From positions 1-34,326 of the forward strand of contig NZ_NQKY01000028.1 in assembly GCF_002252675.1 (NCBI RefSeq): 34,326 bases of DNA. The letters are read 5' to 3'. The DNA is from Synechococcus sp. BO 8801 (GTDB taxonomy: Bacteria; Cyanobacteriota; Cyanobacteriia; PCC-6307; Cyanobiaceae). This document shows, piece by piece, positions 12,570 to 19,797 of this stretch (position 1 is the first letter of the stretch; each line of letters opens with the position of its first letter). The position numbers and the translations under genes were made by a program. Under the pieces are notes generated by a model. It was not told the origin of the DNA and searched no databases. It worked only from the letters and a program-made list of their open reading frames with translations.

Positions 12570-12623
12570 TGAGGGCCAGCCATGGGGCGGGCCGCCCTAG
12601 GGTTGACGCTTGACAGGGAACAG

Positions 12624-12872
12624 ATGCACGCCCATCCGATGACCCTGAAGCAGGTGCCGGTGGGATCCCGGGTGACCATCACCTGCCTGCCCGCCCATCC
12701 GGAACTCCAACGTCGGCTGCGGGCCATGGGGGTGCGTCCCGGTGTGGAGGTGGAAGTCCTGCGCAGGGGCAGGCCAGGCGGAATTCTTCACCTGTCCAGT
12801 GGTCTGCTCGAGTTCATGCTGCGCGATGAACAGGCCGCCGACATGGAAGTGTCCCCCCTCCCGCCGCGCTGA
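12624..12872 (+). CDS. feoA: FeoA-type ferrous iron transport accessory protein
   Basis: 82 residues from the ATG at 12624, preceded by an AGGGA ribosome-binding-like stretch; a second in-frame ATG lies at 12639. The whole protein is one SH3-like beta-barrel of the FeoA family: LKQVPVGSRVTITCL, then LQRRLRAMGVRPGVEVEVL, and GGILHLSSG. FeoA is a small cytosolic protein that supports FeoB-mediated Fe(II) uptake. Unusually, feoB is not downstream but faces this gene on the other strand, with only 5 bp between the two stops. The upstream 54 bp contain TTGACG and TTGACA hexamers but no clear -10, so a dedicated promoter is uncertain. Confidence 0.88.
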   Translation: MHAHPMTLKQVPVGSRVTITCLPAHPELQRRLRAMGVRPGVEVEVLRRGRPGGILHLSSGLLEFMLRDEQAADMEVSPLPPR

Positions 12873-12877
12873 GCGGT

Positions 12878-14785
12878 TCAGCGGAGGGCCTGGATGAAGG
12901 TGCCCCCCTGATAGACGATCAGGGCCATCAGCCAGGCCAGGAGCAGCGACCAGGAGAGGGACAGCAGGGCGAAGGTCCGGCTCCTGGATTCCTGGATCTG
13001 GGCCGCCACCGTTCCGAGGCAGGGGGTGTAGAGCAGCACGAACGTCATGAAGCTGAGCGACTGCAGTGGCGTGATGGCGCCGTGAATCGCTCCACCCAGA
13101 CCCGCTTCGGTGGTGCCATAGATCACCGCCATTGCCCCCAGCAGGATCTCCTTGGCGATGAAGCCGAAGAACAGCGAGACGGTGAGCTCCGGGTTCATGC
13201 CGATCGGCCCCAGCAGCGGCTGGAACAGATGGCCGATCCCAGAGGCCAGGGACGGTCCCGATCCCCCGCCGGCCCCCGGAGGAAGGTGGGTGAGCAGCCA
13301 GATCGCCGCGGCTCCCACGAGGATGAACACCCGCGTGGTGACCATGAAATTCAGCATCGACGTCCAGCCACGGCGCAGGATCGTGCCGAGGCTGGGTGCC
13401 CGGTAGGGGGGCAGCTCCAGCACGAAGGCGCCATCACCCGGGAAGGCGCGCTTGAACACCAGGCCCGTGATCACGGCCGCCGCAAAACTCATCCCGTAGA
13501 AACCGAACAGCACCAGCCCAGGCGCCCACCAGGGCCTCGGGAAGAAGACGCCGGCCAGAAAGATGAACACCGTCAGCCTGGCCTGGCAGAGGGCAAAGGG
13601 AATGCACAGCATCGCCAGCAGGCGCAGGCTGCGGTCCCGGATCACCCGCGTCCCCATGATCGAGGGCACGTTGCAGCCGAACCCCATGACCTGCAGCACG
13701 AACGCCCGCCCGTCCAGCCCCAGCCAGCGCATGAAGCCGTCCATCAGAAAGGCGGCCCGCGGCAGATAGCCCGAGTCCTCGATGATGCCGATCAGCACGT
13801 AGAAGAGGAAGATCAGCGGCAGGAAGGTGGCCACCGTGCTCACCCCCAGCCAGAGGCCATCGAGCAGGAAGCTCTGCAGCCAGTCCGGTGAGCCCAACCC
13901 CTGCAGGCCCGGCTCCAGCCAGGCCTGGCGAATCCAATCGAGCCCGAAGCCGAGCAGGTCCTGGAGCGGCGTGCTGACGGCGTAGAGCAGCTGGAACACC
14001 GCCAGCACGATCGCCAGGAACAGCACCACCCCCAGCACTGGATGGAGCAGCCACCGATCCGCCAGGCGGGTGCGCTGCAGCGGCAACCCCTCCGGCAGGG
14101 TCACGTGGCGGTCAACCAGCTCCTGCTGCCAGGCGTCCATGGCGGCGGGCTGCAGCGGCGGGGGCCCGTCGAGGGGGCCCTCCGGCCGGGGCGCCTCCCC
14201 CCAGCGGTGCAACTGGTCGATCAGGGCGGCGATTCCCTGGTTCCGCTTGGCGCTCACCGGCAGCACCGGCAGGCCGAGGGCACCGGACAGACCCAGGTGA
14301 TCGATCGCCATGCCGTAGCGCTGGGCCTCGTCGCTCATGTTGAGCGCGGCCACCACCGGCAGTCCCAGCTGCCGCATCTGGAGGAGCAGGCGCAACTGGC
14401 CGCTGATCTGGCTGGCGTTGAGCACCACGATCACCAGATCGGGCGGGGTGTTCTGCATGTAGCGCTGCACCACGGCCTCGTCTTCGCTGCTGCCGCTCAG
14501 GTCGTGGATGCCCGGCAGGTCGACAAGCTCGTAGGTCGTGCCGTTGTGGTCAGCGGCCATGGGGCCCCGCAGCAGTTCCACCGTCAGACCCGGCCAGTTG
14601 GCGATCTGCGCATGGCCGCCGGTGAGCCGGTTGAAGAGGGTCGACTTGCCCGTGTTCGGCATGCCCAGCAGGGCGAGCTGCAACCCCTGCCCATCGCCGC
14701 GGCGCCCTGCCTGCCCGGGGCCATGGCAGGAGCCAGCGCCGACCGGGCAACAGCTGATGGCGCCCGTGCGATCAGGGACGGGCAT
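12878..14785 (-). CDS. feoB: FeoB ferrous iron transporter
   Basis: 635 residues. An N-terminal G domain carries G1 GMPNTGKS (41-48), the NWPGLTVE switch region, G3 DLPG (89-92) and G4 as NMSD, the degenerate form common in FeoB. From about residue 240 the protein is a polytopic membrane region with two Gate-type repeats (LPLIFLFYVLIGIIEDSGYLP and the AKEILLGAMAVIYG region). It drives Fe(II) import across the plasma membrane. It is shorter than E. coli FeoB (773 residues) and has an odd leader of about 34 residues with three cysteines (C12, C13, C20) before the G domain; a later start is possible. The ferritin gene lies 67 bp upstream on the same strand. Confidence 0.93.
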   Translation of the reverse strand: MPVPDRTGAISCCPVGAGSCHGPGQAGRRGDGQGLQLALLGMPNTGKSTLFNRLTGGHAQIANWPGLTVELLRGPMAADHNGTTYELVDLPGIHDLSGSSEDEAVVQRYMQNTPPDLVIVVLNASQISGQLRLLLQMRQLGLPVVAALNMSDEAQRYGMAIDHLGLSGALGLPVLPVSAKRNQGIAALIDQLHRWGEAPRPEGPLDGPPPLQPAAMDAWQQELVDRHVTLPEGLPLQRTRLADRWLLHPVLGVVLFLAIVLAVFQLLYAVSTPLQDLLGFGLDWIRQAWLEPGLQGLGSPDWLQSFLLDGLWLGVSTVATFLPLIFLFYVLIGIIEDSGYLPRAAFLMDGFMRWLGLDGRAFVLQVMGFGCNVPSIMGTRVIRDRSLRLLAMLCIPFALCQARLTVFIFLAGVFFPRPWWAPGLVLFGFYGMSFAAAVITGLVFKRAFPGDGAFVLELPPYRAPSLGTILRRGWTSMLNFMVTTRVFILVGAAAIWLLTHLPPGAGGGSGPSLASGIGHLFQPLLGPIGMNPELTVSLFFGFIAKEILLGAMAVIYGTTEAGLGGAIHGAITPLQSLSFMTFVLLYTPCLGTVAAQIQESRSRTFALLSLSWSLLLAWLMALIVYQGGTFIQALR

Positions 14786-14852
14786 GGCCTGGGGGCGCCC
14801 GTCGATTCAGTCGGAGCGCATCAATACGGTAACGGGATGGCGCCATAGGCCG

Positions 14853-15386
14853 TCAGGCACCCCTGGTGCCGCTGAGGCCCCCTTTGACGTGGGTCAGGGC
14901 CGTGCCCTCGAGGAACTGCTGGTCGAGCAGCAGCAGGGCGGCGCTGTTGTCGCCGGCCAGCCGCAGGCGCTTGCGCACGAAGCGGGCTTCGGCCTCCTCC
15001 TGGAGCTGCTCGGCCACGAACCAGTCCAGCATGGCCGTGGCGCTGCGTTCCCCCATGCTCTCGGCCATGGCATAGAGCCGGTTGATCGAGGCGGTGACGC
15101 CCTTCTCCATGTCGTAGACCTGATCGAACAGCATCTGCACCGAGGGCCAGCTGCGTTCCGGAGCCTCGATCGTGGGCAGTTCCACCTGTTCGTCGCTGTC
15201 CACCAGATAGGCGATCATGCGGGCCGCATGGTCGCGCTCCTCCTGGCTCTTCTCGTGCATGTAGGCGGAGAAGCCAGCCAGGTCCTTTTCCCGCAGCCAG
15301 ATCGACATGGCCAGATAGGTGTGCCCGGCCTGGAACTCAGCGGCCAGGTGTTGGTTGATGGCACTGGTGAGCTCTTTCACAGGCAC
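14853..15386 (-). CDS. ftnA: Bacterial ferritin
   Basis: 177 residues starting from GTG at 15386. The ferroxidase residues fall on the E. coli FtnA numbering: E17, Y24, E50, H53 and E94, with Q127 and E130 of the third iron site. The protein should therefore oxidise Fe(II) and store it as a mineral inside a 24-subunit cytosolic shell. Being in front of feoB on the same strand, it links iron import to storage; the 67-bp gap allows co-transcription. The 153 bp upstream (15387-15539) separate it from the hydrolase gene and contain no obvious iron box; a weak TATGGAT hexamer-like element lies near 15,410 on the minus strand. Confidence 0.93.
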   Translation of the reverse strand: MPVKELTSAINQHLAAEFQAGHTYLAMSIWLREKDLAGFSAYMHEKSQEERDHAARMIAYLVDSDEQVELPTIEAPERSWPSVQMLFDQVYDMEKGVTASINRLYAMAESMGERSATAMLDWFVAEQLQEEAEARFVRKRLRLAGDNSAALLLLDQQFLEGTALTHVKGGLSGTRGA

Positions 15387-15539: not shown

Positions 15540-16439
15540 TCAGCCCATCGGTCCCTGCACCTCCAGCAACCGCCGCCCCAGCAGGGCGCCGAACTCCTGG
15601 TGCAGGCCGAGCCGGCCGGGAAGGCGGGTCACCCCATCGGCGGTCTGGGCCAGAAGTTCCATCTCCCGGGTGGACCGGGGCGGGGCCGCCGTCGCCAGCA
15701 CCACCTGAAACGGACACTGCAGAGAACGGGCCTGCTCCAGCCACCAGCCGCTCTCGCCTGCGGCATCGAGCCCGCCGCTGACGAAGGCGGCACTGGCGAA
15801 GCGGGAGCCGCGGCGCCGGGCCAGCCGCTGCTGCTGCCGCAGGCGATCCGGCGTCAGCAGGCCCGGATCCAGCCACACGTGCCGCCGCAGCATCAGCCGG
15901 AGCATGGCCCGGCTGGTGTTCAGCCGGTAGAGCGCCGGGCCGATCAGCGGCAGGGCCACCAGCCGCCGCAGCCAGCCGAAACGCCCCGGCGACCAGCCCG
16001 TCATCGTGGGCAGGGGCCCCCGCCAGGTGGGCGCCACCGCGACGAAGCGGCTCCAGCGGCCGGACCACGCGCTCGCCAGGGCCAGGGCCAGGGGGGCGCT
16101 GTGCCCGGCGGCCACCACGGTGAGGGGGCCAAGCTGGCGGGCCTCCAGGTCGGTGAGGACCGCTTCAAGGCTGGAGCGCAGCAGGGCGGCGTCGTAGGCG
16201 AGCGCCGGACGGTCACTGTCACCGAAGCCCGGCCAGTCGAAACTCACCAGCTGGACCCGGTCGTGCACGGCCGTGACCAGCGGCTGCCACTCGCTGCGGC
16301 TCGACACGGTGCTCAGGGCCGGCAGCAGCAGCCAGATGGGAGCACCCTGCGGCCCGCTGCGCTCGGTCACGATCTGCAGCCGCCGGCCGTTCAGATCGAG
16401 GCTCAGTGTTTCCACCACGCCGCCGAACGCCGGTGTCAT
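15540..16439 (-). CDS. Alpha/beta-hydrolase fold protein
   Basis: 299 residues with the standard hydrolase order: LLLPALSTVSSRSEW (oxyanion-hole loop), VQLVSFDWPGFGDSDRP, and the nucleophile elbow AAGHSAPLA with Ser114. The elbow reads G-H-S-A-P rather than the usual G-x-S-x-G, a change tolerated in some branches. A C-terminal histidine candidate is in LGLHQEFG. The DWPGFGDSD phrase is typical of esterases and chloroperoxidase-like hydrolases. The substrate is unknown. Its start overlaps the stop of the preceding phosphoesterase-like gene by 4 bases (ATGA), placing it at the end of the cobW-headed unit. Confidence 0.8.
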   Translation of the reverse strand: MTPAFGGVVETLSLDLNGRRLQIVTERSGPQGAPIWLLLPALSTVSSRSEWQPLVTAVHDRVQLVSFDWPGFGDSDRPALAYDAALLRSSLEAVLTDLEARQLGPLTVVAAGHSAPLALALASAWSGRWSRFVAVAPTWRGPLPTMTGWSPGRFGWLRRLVALPLIGPALYRLNTSRAMLRLMLRRHVWLDPGLLTPDRLRQQQRLARRRGSRFASAAFVSGGLDAAGESGWWLEQARSLQCPFQVVLATAAPPRSTREMELLAQTADGVTRLPGRLGLHQEFGALLGRRLLEVQGPMG

Positions 16440-17143
16440 GCGAACCCCCTGCGGCGCACCCGGGCCGGGTCAGGGGCCGTGCGGAAGTCGAGGTGGTCGG
16501 TGCCCGGGTCGTAGAGGGTGTACTGAAGCCCGCGGCCCACGCCGATCACCTGGCGACTGGGCACACTCTGGCGCAGCTGCCGTTCCCCCTCGAGATCCCG
16601 CACCCGTGCGGTGATCCCCCCGCCGCAGAGCGCGACGCTGAACTGTTCGCCGCTGCGGGCCGTGAACAGGCGGTTCACGTCCATGCGGGTGAGGCGATCG
16701 AGCAGGCACAGGGGATCCGTGGCGCTGCCGAGGCTGTCCCCCACGTCGGCGGAGCTGCCATGCAGCAGGGCGCAGTCGAGTTCGACGAAGCCGAAGCGCA
16801 GGGCGGCCAGCCAGTCCATGAGGCCGGGATCCACGGCCCGAAGCAGGGCCTGCACGGCGTCCTCTCCAGATTCCCGTCGCAGGGCCTCGGCCCGACGCTC
16901 GCCGCGGTAGCCCCGTTCCGCCAGCAGCTGCTCTTCCCACCAGCCGTAGATGCAGTGCGCTCGCAGCTCCCCCCGGCGCGGATGCTGCAGGCGCTCCAGC
17001 AGCGGCCGGCAATCCCGCTCCGGGCCGATCAGATCCCCCAGCAGGAAGAGGGTGTCCACCCGGCGGCGACGCAGGTCGGCCAGAACCGCCTCATAAACGT
17101 CCAGGTCGCCGCCCAGGCCACTCAGCAATGCCCACCGTGCCAT
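16436..17143 (-). CDS. Degenerate calcineurin-like phosphoesterase homologue (probable pseudo-enzyme)
   Basis: 235 residues, clearly a relative of the next gene upstream. The pairings are LSGLGGDLDVYEAVLADL against LSCLHANLAALEAVLDDI, FLLGDLIG against TCLGDLVG, GWWEEQLL against GCWDEDII, LLHGSSADVGD against FVHGSPNSQHE, and CGGGITAR against CGHTHRP. The metal-binding residues are changed at the first and last sites (H to G and N to D near residues 11-13; both histidines of GHTH lost). It therefore probably cannot hold a two-metal centre. The frame is intact, and it is translationally coupled on both sides (1-base and 4-base overlaps), so it is likely kept for a binding or regulatory role. Partner unknown. 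Confidence 0.75.
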   Translation of the reverse strand: MARWALLSGLGGDLDVYEAVLADLRRRRVDTLFLLGDLIGPERDCRPLLERLQHPRRGELRAHCIYGWWEEQLLAERGYRGERRAEALRRESGEDAVQALLRAVDPGLMDWLAALRFGFVELDCALLHGSSADVGDSLGSATDPLCLLDRLTRMDVNRLFTARSGEQFSVALCGGGITARVRDLEGERQLRQSVPSRQVIGVGRGLQYTLYDPGTDHLDFRTAPDPARVRRRGFA

Positions 17144-17964
17144 CAGCGCTCACACACGTGGCTGGCGTCGTCGGCCCGCTCGGCGTACTCGAACCCGTGG
17201 CGCAGGCGCCAGGCGAACGGAGGCGGCAGGCCCGCAGCCAGGATCGCCCGGCAGGTGCGTTCGACGTCGTAGGGAACCTGGCGGATCTCCACGGTGTCAC
17301 GGTCCCCGTCGTGGATCACGTAGGTGGCCTCGGTGCCCCCGTGCCGCGGCTCGCCCACCGAGCCGGCGTTGACAATGCGGCGAACGGGAAGATCCATCCG
17401 GCGCTCGGACTCCTGCCCGGGACCGCTATCGGGACGGCGCAGCCGCAGCTCGATCGAGCCCTCACGGAACTCGCGCACATAGGGGCGGTGGGTGTGGCCG
17501 CAGAAGAGCATGTCGGCCCCGGCCGAGACGACCCGCTCCAGGGCGGCAAAGGCCTCCATGTCCGGCAGCAGGTACTCGTGCTGGCTGTTGGGGCTGCCAT
17601 GCACGAACACCAGGCCATCGCGGCGCAGGGACAGCGGCAGGCTGGCCAGGAAGTCCTTGTTGTCCGGGCTCAGCTGGGCGGCGGTCCAGTGGTGGGCCAG
17701 CTGCCCCCGCCGCTCCGCCAGCTGGGAGGGATAGCTGCACTCACAGGCATTGAGCCCCTCGATGATGTCCTCGTCCCAGCAGCCCTGGCAGGTGGGGATG
17801 CCGCGGGAGCGGACCAGCTCGACCACCTCATTGGGCTGGGGGCCATAGCCCACCAGATCCCCCAGGCAGGTGATCGTGTCGACGCCGAGCCGATCGATGT
17901 CGTCCAGCACGGCTTCGAGGGCGGCCAGGTTGGCGTGCAGGCAGGAGAGAACGGCGTGGGCCAT
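17143..17964 (-). CDS. Metallophosphoesterase (YfcE/ApaH-like group)
   Basis: 273 residues from the ATG at 17964; a longer frame would run into the upstream P-loop gene, so I reject it. Blocks seen are LSCLHANLAALEAVL (H10, N12), LGDLVGYGP, CQGCWDEDI, VHGSPNSQHEYL, FCGHTHRPYV and NAGSVGEPR. This set is the one found in MJ0936/YfcE-type phosphodiesterases and relatives of diadenosine tetraphosphatase. It should bind two divalent metals (Mn or similar). The physiological substrate is unknown. It follows the P-loop CobW-like gene by 34 bp and overlaps the degenerate homologue by one base. Confidence 0.85.
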   Translation of the reverse strand: MAHAVLSCLHANLAALEAVLDDIDRLGVDTITCLGDLVGYGPQPNEVVELVRSRGIPTCQGCWDEDIIEGLNACECSYPSQLAERRGQLAHHWTAAQLSPDNKDFLASLPLSLRRDGLVFVHGSPNSQHEYLLPDMEAFAALERVVSAGADMLFCGHTHRPYVREFREGSIELRLRRPDSGPGQESERRMDLPVRRIVNAGSVGEPRHGGTEATYVIHDGDRDTVEIRQVPYDVERTCRAILAAGLPPPFAWRLRHGFEYAERADDASHVCER

Positions 17965-17998
17965 GGGGAACGGGGAGGGCAGGATCGGATGGAAGGCG

Positions 17999-18748
17999 TC
18001 AGCCGGTGGCGGGAAGCGGCTCGCCCTGGGAGCGGCGGGGGGCCTGCTGCAGCTCCAGAACGGCATCACTGATCAGGCAGTCGGCGATCGTGGTCTGGAG
18101 GCCGGCCGTGTCCAGGCCCTTGCCCTGCACCACCAGCCTTGAGAGGCGCATGGGCCGTCCATGGGGCGGCGCGACGCTCCGCAGCGGCAGAAACTGGGTG
18201 CCGCTGCAGCTCACCATCCAGTTGAAGAGGAAGCCCCGGCCATCGGGCAGGTTCACCAGGGCCTTGGCGCGGTAGACATCGCCGTAGGCCCCATTGACCA
18301 GCTCGAACCAGAAGCTGTTCACGCTGGCGGGATCCCAGACCTCCGTCACCAGATCCAGGCTCCAGGAGTCCAGGGCCCCGAACACCAGGGTGTCCTGACG
18401 CGGCAGCTCGCTGTCACGACCGAAATGGAGGTGGCGATCCGGCCGCAGGCCCAGGGCGAGCGTCTCGGGAATCTCGGGCCCGAAGAGGGGCAGCTCGATC
18501 AGGGCCAGCAGGCCCTCCGCCTCCGGTGCGGGGTCCTGGGATCCGTCAGCCAGCTCACGCAGGTCAGGGATCTGGTCGTGGAGAAAGGCCTGATCGAGGC
18601 CCCCATCCAGGGCCAGGGGGCGCCCCTCGGGATCGACGCCTTCCAGACGCCGATAGACGCGGGGGCCCCGGTGCTCCTGCAGGCGGCTCAGGATCCAGCT
18701 GGTCTTGCCGCAGCCCGGCGGTCCGGAGACCAGAACCACCCCTCTCAT
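17999..18748 (-). CDS. P-loop CobW-like protein with incomplete GTPase motifs
   Basis: 249 residues. A Walker A motif, GPPGCGKTS (9-17), opens the protein, followed by a shortened nucleotide-binding region without a visible NKxD guanine motif and without the CxCC motif of COG0523 proteins. The C-terminal part ([37 protein letters not shown]) resembles the CobW C-terminal domain. I read it as a CobW relative that may still bind nucleotide but has probably lost metal transfer by the CxCC route. The ATG overlaps the stop of the full CobW gene by 4 bases. I cannot name a client. Confidence 0.7.
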
Positions 18749-19743
18749 GGCGCCACCACGCAGGCTTCCAGCTGGGCCCGCAGGCTGCTGGTATCCAGGT
18801 CCCTGCCGATCGCCACCACCCTCGTGTGGCGCGGGGCGCCGTCGGGCCAGTCGGAATCATCGATGGTGAAGCGCTTGCCGCAGAGGTGGAACAGGTGGCG
18901 GCGCTCGCTCTCCCGGAACCAGAGCACCCCCTTGGCCCGGAAGACGGAGGCGGGAAGCTGGTTGTCGAGGAAGTGCTGGAACCGGCGCAGATCGAACGGG
19001 GCCTCCACCGCCAGGGACACCGATCGGAAGCCCTCCAGCTCGGGGGTATGGGCGTGGTGGTGGGCGTGCACGTGATGGTGATTGTCGTGCCCAGGGGCCT
19101 CCTCGCGAGCCTCCTCCTCAGCCTGCAGGCTCACCAGCCGATCGGTTTCGAACAGGCCCACGCTCAGCAGCATGGCCAGCGGCACGCCGGAGTGGTCGGC
19201 GCGCAGCAGGCGGGCATCGGCCTTGATCTCCCGCAGGCTGGCCTCCACGGCGGCCAGTCGCTCCTCATCCACCAGATCGCATTTGTTGAGCACCAGGATG
19301 TCGCCGTAGACCACCTGGGCCCGGGCGATCGGGCTGGCGCAGGCGGTGGCCTCGAAGTGTTCGGCATCGATCAGGGTGATGATCGAATCAAGGCGCAGGC
19401 GGTCGCGGAAGTCCCCGGCCAGGAAGGTCATGGCCACGGGCAGGGGATCGGCCAGACCGGTGGTCTCCACGACGATGTAGTCGACCGGGTCAGGGCGGTC
19501 CAGCACCCGGTGCACCGCCGCCTTGAGCTCGCCGTTGATCGAGCAGCAGATGCAGCCGTTGCTGAGCTCGACCATGGCTTCACTGGTGGCCACCACCAGC
19601 TCGTTGTCGATACCGATCTCACCGAACTCATTCACCAGCACGGCGGTGCGCGTCCCCTGCTGGCCGGAAAGGATGCGGTTGAGCAGCGTGGTCTTGCCGG
19701 CGCCGAGGAAACCGGTGAGCACGGTGACGGGGATCTGGACCAT
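18745..19743 (-). CDS. CobW/COG0523 GTPase metallochaperone, likely zinc-related
   Basis: 332 residues. G1 is GFLGAGKTT (11-19), followed by [13 protein letters not shown], the metal site GCICCS with C64, C66 and C67, ETTGLADP (switch II region) and the guanine motif NKCDL. A stretch near 219-236 holds about ten histidines ([11 protein letters not shown]), a typical metal-loading loop. The C-terminal CobW domain begins around 240. COG0523 proteins hydrolyse GTP to hand Zn or Co to client enzymes, often under zinc limitation. A Fur-family-like palindrome 40 bp upstream supports Zur control. It heads five minus-strand genes joined by 4-, 34-, 1- and 4-base junctions. Confidence 0.88.
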
Positions 19744-19782
19744 GGGGGTCGGGACGGACAGCCGCTCAGCCGTAGACAGGGC

Positions 19783-19797
19783 TGATAACGGTTCTCA
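19783..19797 (-). promoter_or_regulatory. Candidate Zur/Fur-type operator upstream of the cobW-type gene
   Basis: The plus strand reads TGATAACGGTTCTCA, a 7-1-7 inverted repeat (TGATAAC and the complement of GTTCTCA, TGAGAAC) with one mismatched pair. This matches the form of cyanobacterial Zur boxes (TGATAATnATTATCA) known in other species. It lies 40 bp before the start codon of the COG0523 gene, where a repressor would block transcription. The same gap also serves pstS, but the site is about 145 bp from that start. Inference from pattern only. Confidence 0.5.

What the first reader, a model, noticed from the sequence alone, without database searches (positions are those of the whole stretch)
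15540..19797. Five-gene overlapping unit headed by a COG0523 metallochaperone with a Zur-like box
Seen: a full CobW/COG0523 protein (CxCC, His-rich loop), a CobW-like P-loop protein without CxCC, an intact metallophosphoesterase, its degenerate homologue and an alpha/beta hydrolase are joined by junctions of 4, 34, 1 and 4 bases, and a 7-1-7 palindrome precedes the unit. Known: COG0523 genes are often Zur-regulated and serve clients that need zinc. Inferred: the phosphoesterase pair or hydrolase could be a metal-dependent client or backup enzyme set used when zinc is short. I know of no described system with this composition.
Basis: partly seen in the sequence, partly recalled or inferred. Interest (0 to 1): 0.6.

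Follow-up and report, generated by a model that had tools for sequence, protein, structure and literature searches.

The report
Cyanobacterial low-zinc gene trio
The window holds what looks like a zinc-starvation operon whose conserved heart, found in many cyanobacteria, is a trio: a stripped-down metal-delivery-type protein, a phosphoesterase whose metal-binding residues have become cysteines, and a degenerate copy of that phosphoesterase; what the trio does is unknown and testable.

Summary
In detail: five overlapping minus-strand genes (19743-15540) and a 7-1-7 palindrome 40-54 bp before the first. The reading changes.

(1) The palindrome is very probably a Zur box. It precedes cobW in 13 of 13 cobW-headed loci (window included), and exact boxes stand directly before cobX in 14 of 47 loci of other cyanobacteria. 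In Picosynechococcus PCC 7002 the gene I match to cobX is Zur-repressed and TPEN-induced (PMC4628125).

(2) The conserved core is a trio, cobX-mpe1-mpe2, not COG0523 plus hydrolase. 100 of 299 genomes of the order have mpe1, all 100 with cobX. The trio stands in order in 40 of 47 mpe1 loci of other cyanobacteria, often with COG0523, hemB or folE.

(3) The phosphoesterase is not 'intact': its motif-I Asp and motif-III Asn metal ligands are Cys in 122 and 123 of 123 homologues (Asp and Asn in 9 of 9 outgroup enzymes). mpe2 has lost most ligands yet is kept.

Likely function: a zinc-starvation phosphoesterase with Cys-containing metal sites, a pseudoenzyme partner and a CobW-derived maturation NTPase. 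Regulation is well supported; chemistry, partners and substrate are inferred. I found no description of the trio in the open-access library searched.

The parts
19783..19797 (-). Zur-type box (minus strand TGAGAACCGTTATCA), 40-54 bp upstream of the cobW start
   Evidence: conserved in 13 of 13 cobW-headed loci, window included
18745..19743 (-). cobW: full COG0523/G3E GTPase ([22 protein letters not shown], His-rich loop, CobW_C)
   Evidence: accessory head gene, 12 of 40 relatives
17999..18748 (-). cobX: divergent P-loop protein with CobW_C-like C-terminal domain, no CxCC
17143..17964 (-). mpe1: calcineurin-like phosphoesterase fold with Cys at the motif I Asp and motif III Asn positions; nine conserved Cys
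16436..17143 (-). mpe2: degenerate paralogue of mpe1 (most metal ligands lost), conserved; pseudoenzyme candidate
15540..16439 (-). abh: alpha/beta hydrolase, accessory; found in 10 of 40 relatives

Best explanation
The unit is a Zur-repressed low-zinc operon. When zinc falls, Zur leaves the box at 19783-19797 and the operon is made. (Box, neighbourhood and published Zur/TPEN response of a relative's cobX: shown; action in this organism: inferred.) The core is cobX-mpe1-mpe2. MPE1 keeps the calcineurin-like fold and the ligands H10, D36, H122, H157 and H159, but carries Cys8 and Cys62 where the family has Asp and Asn (shown by sequence). By the family's known geometry this puts one thiolate on each metal of the two-metal site (inferred), which would favour zinc and tighten its hold. 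MPE2, which has lost most ligands, probably pairs with MPE1 as a pseudoenzyme subunit (inferred from constant adjacency). CobX, a P-loop protein without the CxCC metal motif but with a CobW_C-like domain, probably acts as an NTPase that helps assemble or load MPE1, with zinc supplied by full COG0523 proteins where they are encoded beside it (inferred). The product is probably a phosphoesterase that must keep working in zinc-starved cells; its substrate is unknown.
For: Box within 200 bp at no more than 1 mismatch: 13 of 13 cobW-headed loci (expected 0.02) and 18 of 28 cobX-headed loci (expected 0.49). In 47 loci of other cyanobacteria, 38 exact boxes against 1.4 expected; in 14 of these loci one lies directly before cobX. 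This genome's znu operon (COG0523-WD40-znuA-znuC) has the related site TGAAAATGATTCCCA at its head. znu genes beside the trio in part of the loci; thrS, hemB, folE or hisI in 23 of 47 and COG0523 in 26 of 47 loci of other cyanobacteria (examples). PCC 7002: the truncated cobX (RS15855, matched by order to G0131) and the divergent FAD gene share the box TGATAATAATTATCA, and G0131/G0132 are up in the zur mutant and with TPEN (PMC4628125). mpe1 occurs in 100 of 299 genomes of the order, all with cobX. Cys8 122 of 123, Cys62 123 of 123, the other five ligands 123 of 123; outgroup Asp and Asn 9 of 9. CobX C-terminal part matches YjiA, Z 9.5, rmsd 3.6, 97 residues.
Against: No zinc binding, enzyme activity, substrate or complex has been tested. 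An enzyme that needs zinc is an odd thing to induce when zinc is short. CobX has diverged so far that its profile matches cobW only weakly and only in the C-terminal domain (hhalign probability 18.9%); its NTPase activity is assumed. The AlphaFold model of MPE1 is poor at residues 62-80, where several Cys lie. In PCC 7002 two genes inside the cluster (G0129, G0130) were not derepressed (PMC4628125); there the module is broken. The WH8102 Zur regulon (eight genes named in the passages of PMC9337993) does not name the trio; whether WH8102 has it was not tested. Ten of 28 cobX-headed loci have no box at 1 mismatch, and one (L061) none at 2. The site at the head of this genome's znu operon is one of 59 listed matches at up to 3 mismatches (16 for the control pattern). 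One mpe1 (L183) has Asp at position 8. The trio is patchy: 199 of the 299 genomes showed no mpe1.
Confidence: 0.5

Rival explanations
1. MPE1 is no longer an enzyme: the fold has been turned into a Cys/His-rich zinc carrier or buffer that passes zinc between importer, COG0523 proteins and clients in starved cells; MPE2 is its partner.
For: Nine conserved Cys; linkage to znu and COG0523 genes; two catalytic-metal ligands changed in nearly all members.
Against: The remaining five metal ligands are kept in 123 of 123, which suggests catalysis is still selected.
Confidence: 0.2
2. The trio clears a nucleotide that builds up or signals under zinc starvation (for example Ap4A, or ZTP made when folate synthesis stalls), so MPE1 is a signal hydrolase rather than a housekeeping enzyme.
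For: Among the nearest structures is the Ap4A hydrolase SapH. The trio is beside folE in 14, thrS in 6 and hisI in 6 of 47 loci; that the usual forms of these enzymes need zinc is recalled.
Against: The closest structure, 3rqz, carries no substrate in its title; fold similarity does not show substrate; no nucleotide has been tested.
Confidence: 0.15
3. The pair is a zinc-sparing backup like other Zur-regulated paralogues (hemB-II, folE-II): it replaces a zinc-dependent phosphatase and uses another metal or none.
For: Sits in islands with paralogues of zinc enzymes (PMC4628125).
Against: Cys for Asp/Asn makes a site better suited to zinc or other thiophilic metals, not one that avoids zinc (inference); mpe1 is always beside cobX in the genomes examined of the order.
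Confidence: 0.15
4. The box is a Fur (iron) or PerR box and the unit serves iron stress.
For: Fur boxes look alike (recalled); ferritin and feoB lie next to the unit in the window.
Against: No other site with up to 3 mismatches to TGAGAACCGTTCTCA in the window, so none near ferritin or feoAB; linkage to znu; Zur-mutant and TPEN response in PCC 7002 (PMC4628125), although TPEN also induced iron genes there.
Confidence: 0.05

Closest known systems
Zur-regulated COG0523 islands with paralogues of zinc enzymes (Haas 2009, PMC2770081; PCC 7002, PMC4628125)
   Same: Same kind of box, same neighbours (COG0523, znu, hemB, folE, thrS); the PCC 7002 gene that I match to cobX is already a recorded Zur target, as an unnamed conserved protein.
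   Different: The cobX-mpe1-mpe2 trio is not described in the passages I read; the main text of Haas 2009 has no word beginning phosphoesterase or phosphatase.
Calcineurin-like metallophosphoesterases, Metallophos_2 branch (3rqz, SapH 3qfm)
   Same: Fold, GD, HGS and GHTH motifs; 32% identity to 3rqz over the structural alignment.
   Different: Motif I Asp and motif III Asn are Cys; nine conserved Cys; constant neighbourhood with a degenerate paralogue and a CobW-like protein.
COG0523/G3E GTPases (YjiA, CobW, ZigA)
   Same: cobW is a full member of COG0523; CobX shares the P loop and a CobW_C-like domain.
   Different: CobX lacks CxCC and, by inspection, NKxD; it is about 250 residues long.
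Phosphoesterases in arsenic plasmid islands of Bacteroidota
   Same: The Hymenobacter protein is 37% identical to mpe1 and keeps C33 and the CxC pair.
   Different: Canonical Asp and Asn ligands; arsenic rather than zinc neighbourhood.

Membership tests
COG0523 (cobW) | Walker A, CxCC, ETxG, NKxD, CobW_C | tested here: met
   PF02492 188.6 bits and PF07683 85.8 bits; GFLGxGKT, C64xC66C67, E93TTG and N153KxD invariant in 13 sequences
COG0523 (cobX) | P loop | tested here: met
   GxPGCGKT (residues 9-16) invariant in 41 and in 24 sequences
COG0523 (cobX) | CxCC metal motif | tested here: not met
   absent from the window protein and from the aligned rows printed; no such invariant columns
COG0523 (cobX) | CobW_C domain | tested here: inconclusive
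   window protein 21.0 bits against cut-off 22; 21 of 24 homologues match at E 0.01 or better; YjiA C-terminal domain Z 9.5, rmsd 3.6, 97 residues; hhalign to cobW only 18.9%
Calcineurin-like metallophosphoesterase (mpe1) | fold | tested here: met
   PF12850 75.2 bits; Foldseek 3rqz E 4.8e-18, on a model of mean pLDDT 70.5
Calcineurin-like metallophosphoesterase (mpe1) | motif I Asp and motif III Asn metal ligands | tested here: not met
   Cys in 122 of 123 and 123 of 123
Calcineurin-like metallophosphoesterase (mpe1) | motif II Asp, motif IV His, motif V HxH | tested here: met
   123 of 123 each
Active metallophosphoesterase (mpe2) | metal ligands | tested here: not met
   motif I Asp is Gly in 116 of 117, motif III Asn is Trp in 115 of 117, first motif V His is Arg in 113 of 117; motif II Asp kept in 114, motif IV His in 117; no Pfam match in 23 of 23 at E 0.1
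Cyanobacterial Zur regulon | Zur-type box before the operon, conserved | tested here: met
Cyanobacterial Zur regulon | Zur-dependent, zinc-dependent expression | not testable with these tools
   published only for the broken PCC 7002 relative, as far as I found (PMC4628125)
Asymmetric Ap4A hydrolase (SapH type) | activity on Ap4A | not testable with these tools
   structural neighbour only

The most novel reading that the evidence does not exclude
The trio is an undescribed metalloenzyme system: a calcineurin-type phosphoesterase rebuilt with a cysteine on each metal so that it can hold zinc at starvation levels, made as a heteromer with a dead paralogue and assembled by a CobW-derived NTPase that has given up its own metal motif; it is a widespread arm of the cyanobacterial zinc-starvation response and supplies a dedicated client pair for a COG0523-type factor.
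Probability: 0.3. Interest if true: 0.8.

Novelty: new variant of a known kind. Interest (0 to 1): 0.62.

Why it matters
[quoted passage not shown] Here a CobW-like protein and two phosphoesterase-fold proteins stay together in many cyanobacteria behind Zur-type boxes, and the phosphoesterase has cysteines at two metal positions. That gives a concrete, testable client and a testable shift of metal preference in a very large enzyme superfamily, in organisms (Prochlorococcus, marine Synechococcus, bloom formers) for which zinc supply matters.

Tried and rejected
Five-gene unit as the conserved entity: rejected, because cobW and abh vary while the trio is constant. Fur/iron control: considered because of ferritin and feoB; not favoured (PMC4628125). 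A box at the C35 zur-COG0523 locus: in the 17 kb taken (L042) only one site within 3 mismatches, about 4 kb from the COG0523 gene. mpe1 and mpe2 as sisters: the tree gives three one-branch groups (mpe1 94/94, mpe2 100/100, outgroup 95/89) and cannot say which two are closest. Geometry of the Cys site: the MPE1 model is weak there and no coordinates were read. VIA alignment was run on the CobX model only. Whether WH8102, PCC 7120 or PCC 6803 carry the trio was not tested.

Limits of counts. The 40 Cyanobiaceae loci were chosen by me from the cobX hits to span genera, so they have cobX by construction; the freer figure is 100 of 299 (E at most 1e-40). L187, whose mpe1 match is in two pieces, was left out of the mpe1 rows; L070 and short or split pieces were left out of the mpe2 rows. 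The nine outgroup proteins were picked by me from the plasmid records (67 records; 47 records). Expected box numbers come from first-order Markov resampling of the same stretches. For the neighbour genes no background rate was computed. The homologue rows of alignments A3 and A4 are one residue short at the C end by my slip. Names such as Zur for the C35 regulator, the motif names of the phosphoesterase family and the zinc need of FolE, ThrS and HisI are recalled.

Literature. Seen as passages: PMC4628125, PMC9337993, PMC2770081, PMC6103462, PMC10957091, PMC12058595, PMC9846622, PMC9009326. Others only as search listings. Barnett 2012 and Napolitano 2012 are not held, so their tables could not be checked; RegPrecise and supplementary files were not searched. 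That the trio is not described rests on (13 papers, all listed; 64 papers, 15 listed; 18 papers, 15 listed; none; 9 papers, all listed), in an open-access library only.
Full report
WHAT IS THERE. Pfam sees a full COG0523 protein, a sub-threshold CobW_C in cobX, a Metallophos_2 phosphoesterase, nothing in mpe2 and an alpha/beta hydrolase. The palindrome is at 19783-19797, 40-54 bp before the cobW start, with 6 of 7 arm pairs. The window is contig C34 of a 3.27 Mb genome with three FUR-family matches and eight PF02492 matches.

WHAT IS CONSERVED. A search of 299 genomes of the order finds cobX in 105; at least four of these are fragments or decayed copies (G076, G226, G227, G252), and two more have one stop inside. 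mpe1 is found at E 1e-40 or better in 100 of the same 299, and comparing the two printed lists shows that all 100 are among the 105. In 40 loci that I picked from the cobX hits to span genera, mpe1 follows cobX in 40, mpe2 follows in 39 (L070 lacks it), cobW heads the unit in 12, two more (L074, L080) have a cobW downstream, and abh is found in 10. cobW and cobX overlap by 4 bases in 12 of 12 cobW-headed relatives, as in the window (whose gap figures leave out the stop codon). The trio is therefore the unit, and COG0523 and abh are add-ons. It is patchy: in the window's own genus 4 sampled genomes have mpe1 and at least 20 lack it (the list of misses is cut).

BEYOND PICOCYANOBACTERIA. In the 47 loci outside the picocyanobacteria, cobX lies just upstream in 46 (the exception, L174, begins 172 bp before mpe1), mpe2 just downstream in 41 (L174 among them, so the full trio in order in 40), and a COG0523 gene on the fetched stretch in 26. 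A class-wide search found mpe1 in 145 of 388 genomes, members of the order included. Neighbours recognised by similarity on the 47 stretches: COG0523 26, the FAD gene 16, folE 14, hemB 13, thrS 6, hisI 6, znuA 5, znuC 5; 23 have at least one of hemB, thrS, folE or hisI (no background rate computed). Annotated examples: Trichormus variabilis plasmid A (znuC, znuA, hemB, thrS, DUF1636, GTP-binding protein, methyltransferase, hisI, then the trio), Dolichospermum DET69 and Picosynechococcus PCC 73109 (hemB, folE, the trio and a divergent FAD gene).

THE BOX. In 13 of 13 cobW-headed loci (window included) a site matching TGANAANNNTTNTCA with at most one mismatch begins 34-70 bp before the start reference used; 0.02 were expected. 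Of 28 cobX-headed loci 18 have one within 200 bp (0.49 expected) and 27 have one at two mismatches (4.73 expected); L061 has none. In the 47 other loci there are 38 exact sites against 1.4 expected, and in 14 loci one stands directly before cobX. L051 has two exact sites in the roughly 180 bp between divergent znuC and cobX, the farther one at the edge of znuC. Eight of the 12 cobW-headed relatives have znu genes just downstream on the other strand, in L057 after one further reading frame and in L052 cut by the contig end, and a ninth, L056, has them close by; all eight match annotated T. variabilis znuC. The window itself has no znu genes beside the unit. In the window's own genome the znu operon (COG0523-WD40-znuA-znuC) carries TGAAAATGATTCCCA at its head, overlapping the first possible start codon of the COG0523 gene; this is one of 59 listed matches at up to three mismatches, against 16 for the control pattern, so alone it is weak. 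T. variabilis and Dolichospermum carry TGATAACGATTCTCA, one base from the window's site, just before thrS, the first plus-strand gene of the row that ends in the trio.

EXPERIMENTAL SUPPORT IN PRINT. Ludwig 2015 (PMC4628125; passages) reports that hemB-II, folE-II, G0131 (GTPase-like) and G0132 (FAD protein) of plasmid pAQ7 rise in the zur mutant and with TPEN, while G0129 (phosphoesterase) and G0130 do not rise in the zur mutant. On pAQ7 the gene at the G0131 position (RS15855) is a cobX whose first 147 residues are 99% identical to that of PCC 73109 and then break off; no mpe1 was found there; the next gene shows no similarity to the trio; and RS15845 is the last 111 residues of mpe2. Old and new locus tags were matched by order, not by a table. 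The box TGATAATAATTATCA lies between cobX and the FAD gene. So the cobX promoter is a Zur target there, and the two silent genes are plausibly explained by a broken module. Against this, the passages of PMC9337993 name eight Zur-dependent genes in WH8102 and not the trio; I did not test whether WH8102 has it. Haas 2009 (PMC2770081, passages) already notes two COG0523 genes with putative Zur sites in cyanobacteria, so Zur control of a COG0523 gene is not new.

THE PHOSPHOESTERASE. Against 3rqz, the window protein has Cys at the motif I Asp and Cys at the motif III Asn. Over 123 homologues (at least five repeats among them) position 8 is Cys in 122 and Asp in one (L183, a Crocosphaera MAG), and position 62 is Cys in 123; H10, D36, H122, H157 and H159 are invariant; C74, C76 and C155 are in 123, C33 and C271 in 122, C238 in 119, C59 in 111. 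Nine outgroup enzymes have Asp and Asn in 9 of 9; five of them share the CxC pair. All nine cysteines are invariant in the 41 picocyanobacterial sequences. The structure model (mean pLDDT 70.5) has the fold (3rqz E 4.8e-18, SapH next) but is poor at residues 62-80. mpe2 is a paralogue (hhalign probability 98.4% against mpe1), forms one branch (100/100), and has lost the motif I Asp, the motif III Asn and the motif V histidines in most of 117 sequences while keeping the motif II Asp in 114 and the motif IV His in 117.

COBX. Walker A and a [10 protein letters not shown]...RAK core are invariant, CxCC is absent. The model's C-terminal part matches YjiA (Z 9.5, rmsd 3.6, 97 residues) and its N-terminal part matches Ffh/FtsY-type GTPases (Z up to 8.0, a level the tool calls common). 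21 of 24 homologues match CobW_C, but a direct profile comparison with cobW is weak (18.9%). I call it CobW-derived as an inference.

HOW IT MAY WORK. Shown: the box, the linkage, the ligand changes, the degenerate character of mpe2 and the constant order. Inferred: Zur action here; a Cys on each metal of the site; preference for zinc; an MPE1-MPE2 heteromer; CobX as assembly factor; a phosphoesterase substrate. Rivals are a zinc carrier built on the fold, a nucleotide-signal hydrolase, and a zinc-sparing backup.

NOVELTY. Searches in the held open-access library (not all hits listed) showed no description of the trio; the one near mention that I read is the G0129/G0131 remark in PMC4628125. 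In Nodularia a pair of adjacent phosphoesterase genes, nsp29340/29350, is not induced by phosphate shortage (PMC9846622, passage), and a diel-expression study lists a porphobilinogen synthase operon next to one with a metallophosphoesterase (PMC9009326, passage); I did not confirm that these are the trio. The kind (Zur-regulated island with COG0523) is known; the trio and the Cys ligands are the new part.

Noticed in passing
L224:18717-20488 (PCC 7002 pAQ7): The trio is broken in PCC 7002: cobX truncated, mpe1 missing with an unrelated gene in its place, mpe2 reduced to its C-terminal part. This may explain why G0129 and G0130 did not respond in the published zur mutant.
   Followed up: yes
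L043:3286-7232 (own genome, contig C1): Operon COG0523-WD40-znuA-znuC with a Zur-like site overlapping the first possible start codon; the WD40 gene recurs beside COG0523 and znu genes in several relatives.
   Followed up: partly
L042:2354-7656 (own genome, contig C35): A short FUR-family protein (probably Zur) lies next to a His-rich COG0523 gene and probable membrane-protein genes; no box of the window's type was found beside them.
   Followed up: partly
L223, L228: Phosphoesterases related to mpe1 (Hymenobacter 37% identical) sit in arsenic islands of Bacteroidota plasmids, keep the CxC pair but have canonical metal ligands; Mucilaginibacter has two in tandem.
   Followed up: partly
L183:6001-6813: The only one of 123 mpe1 rows with Asp instead of Cys at motif I (Crocosphaera MAG); it still has Cys at motif III. 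Possible ancestral state or reversion.
   Followed up: no
L123: A MAG labelled Blastopirellula carries a cobX-mpe1 contig with mpe1 73% identical to the window's, probably a mis-binned picocyanobacterial contig.
   Followed up: no
own genome C1:199611-199664 and C35:89499-89552: Two pairs of box-like sites (3 mismatches each) with the same letters and spacing occur on two contigs, perhaps Fur-type sites or a repeated stretch.
   Followed up: no
window 12582-15386: An ORF that looks like feoA (+, not searched against families), feoB (-) and a ferritin gene (-) lie directly downstream of the unit; L051 shows a similar iron block beside znuB.
   Followed up: no
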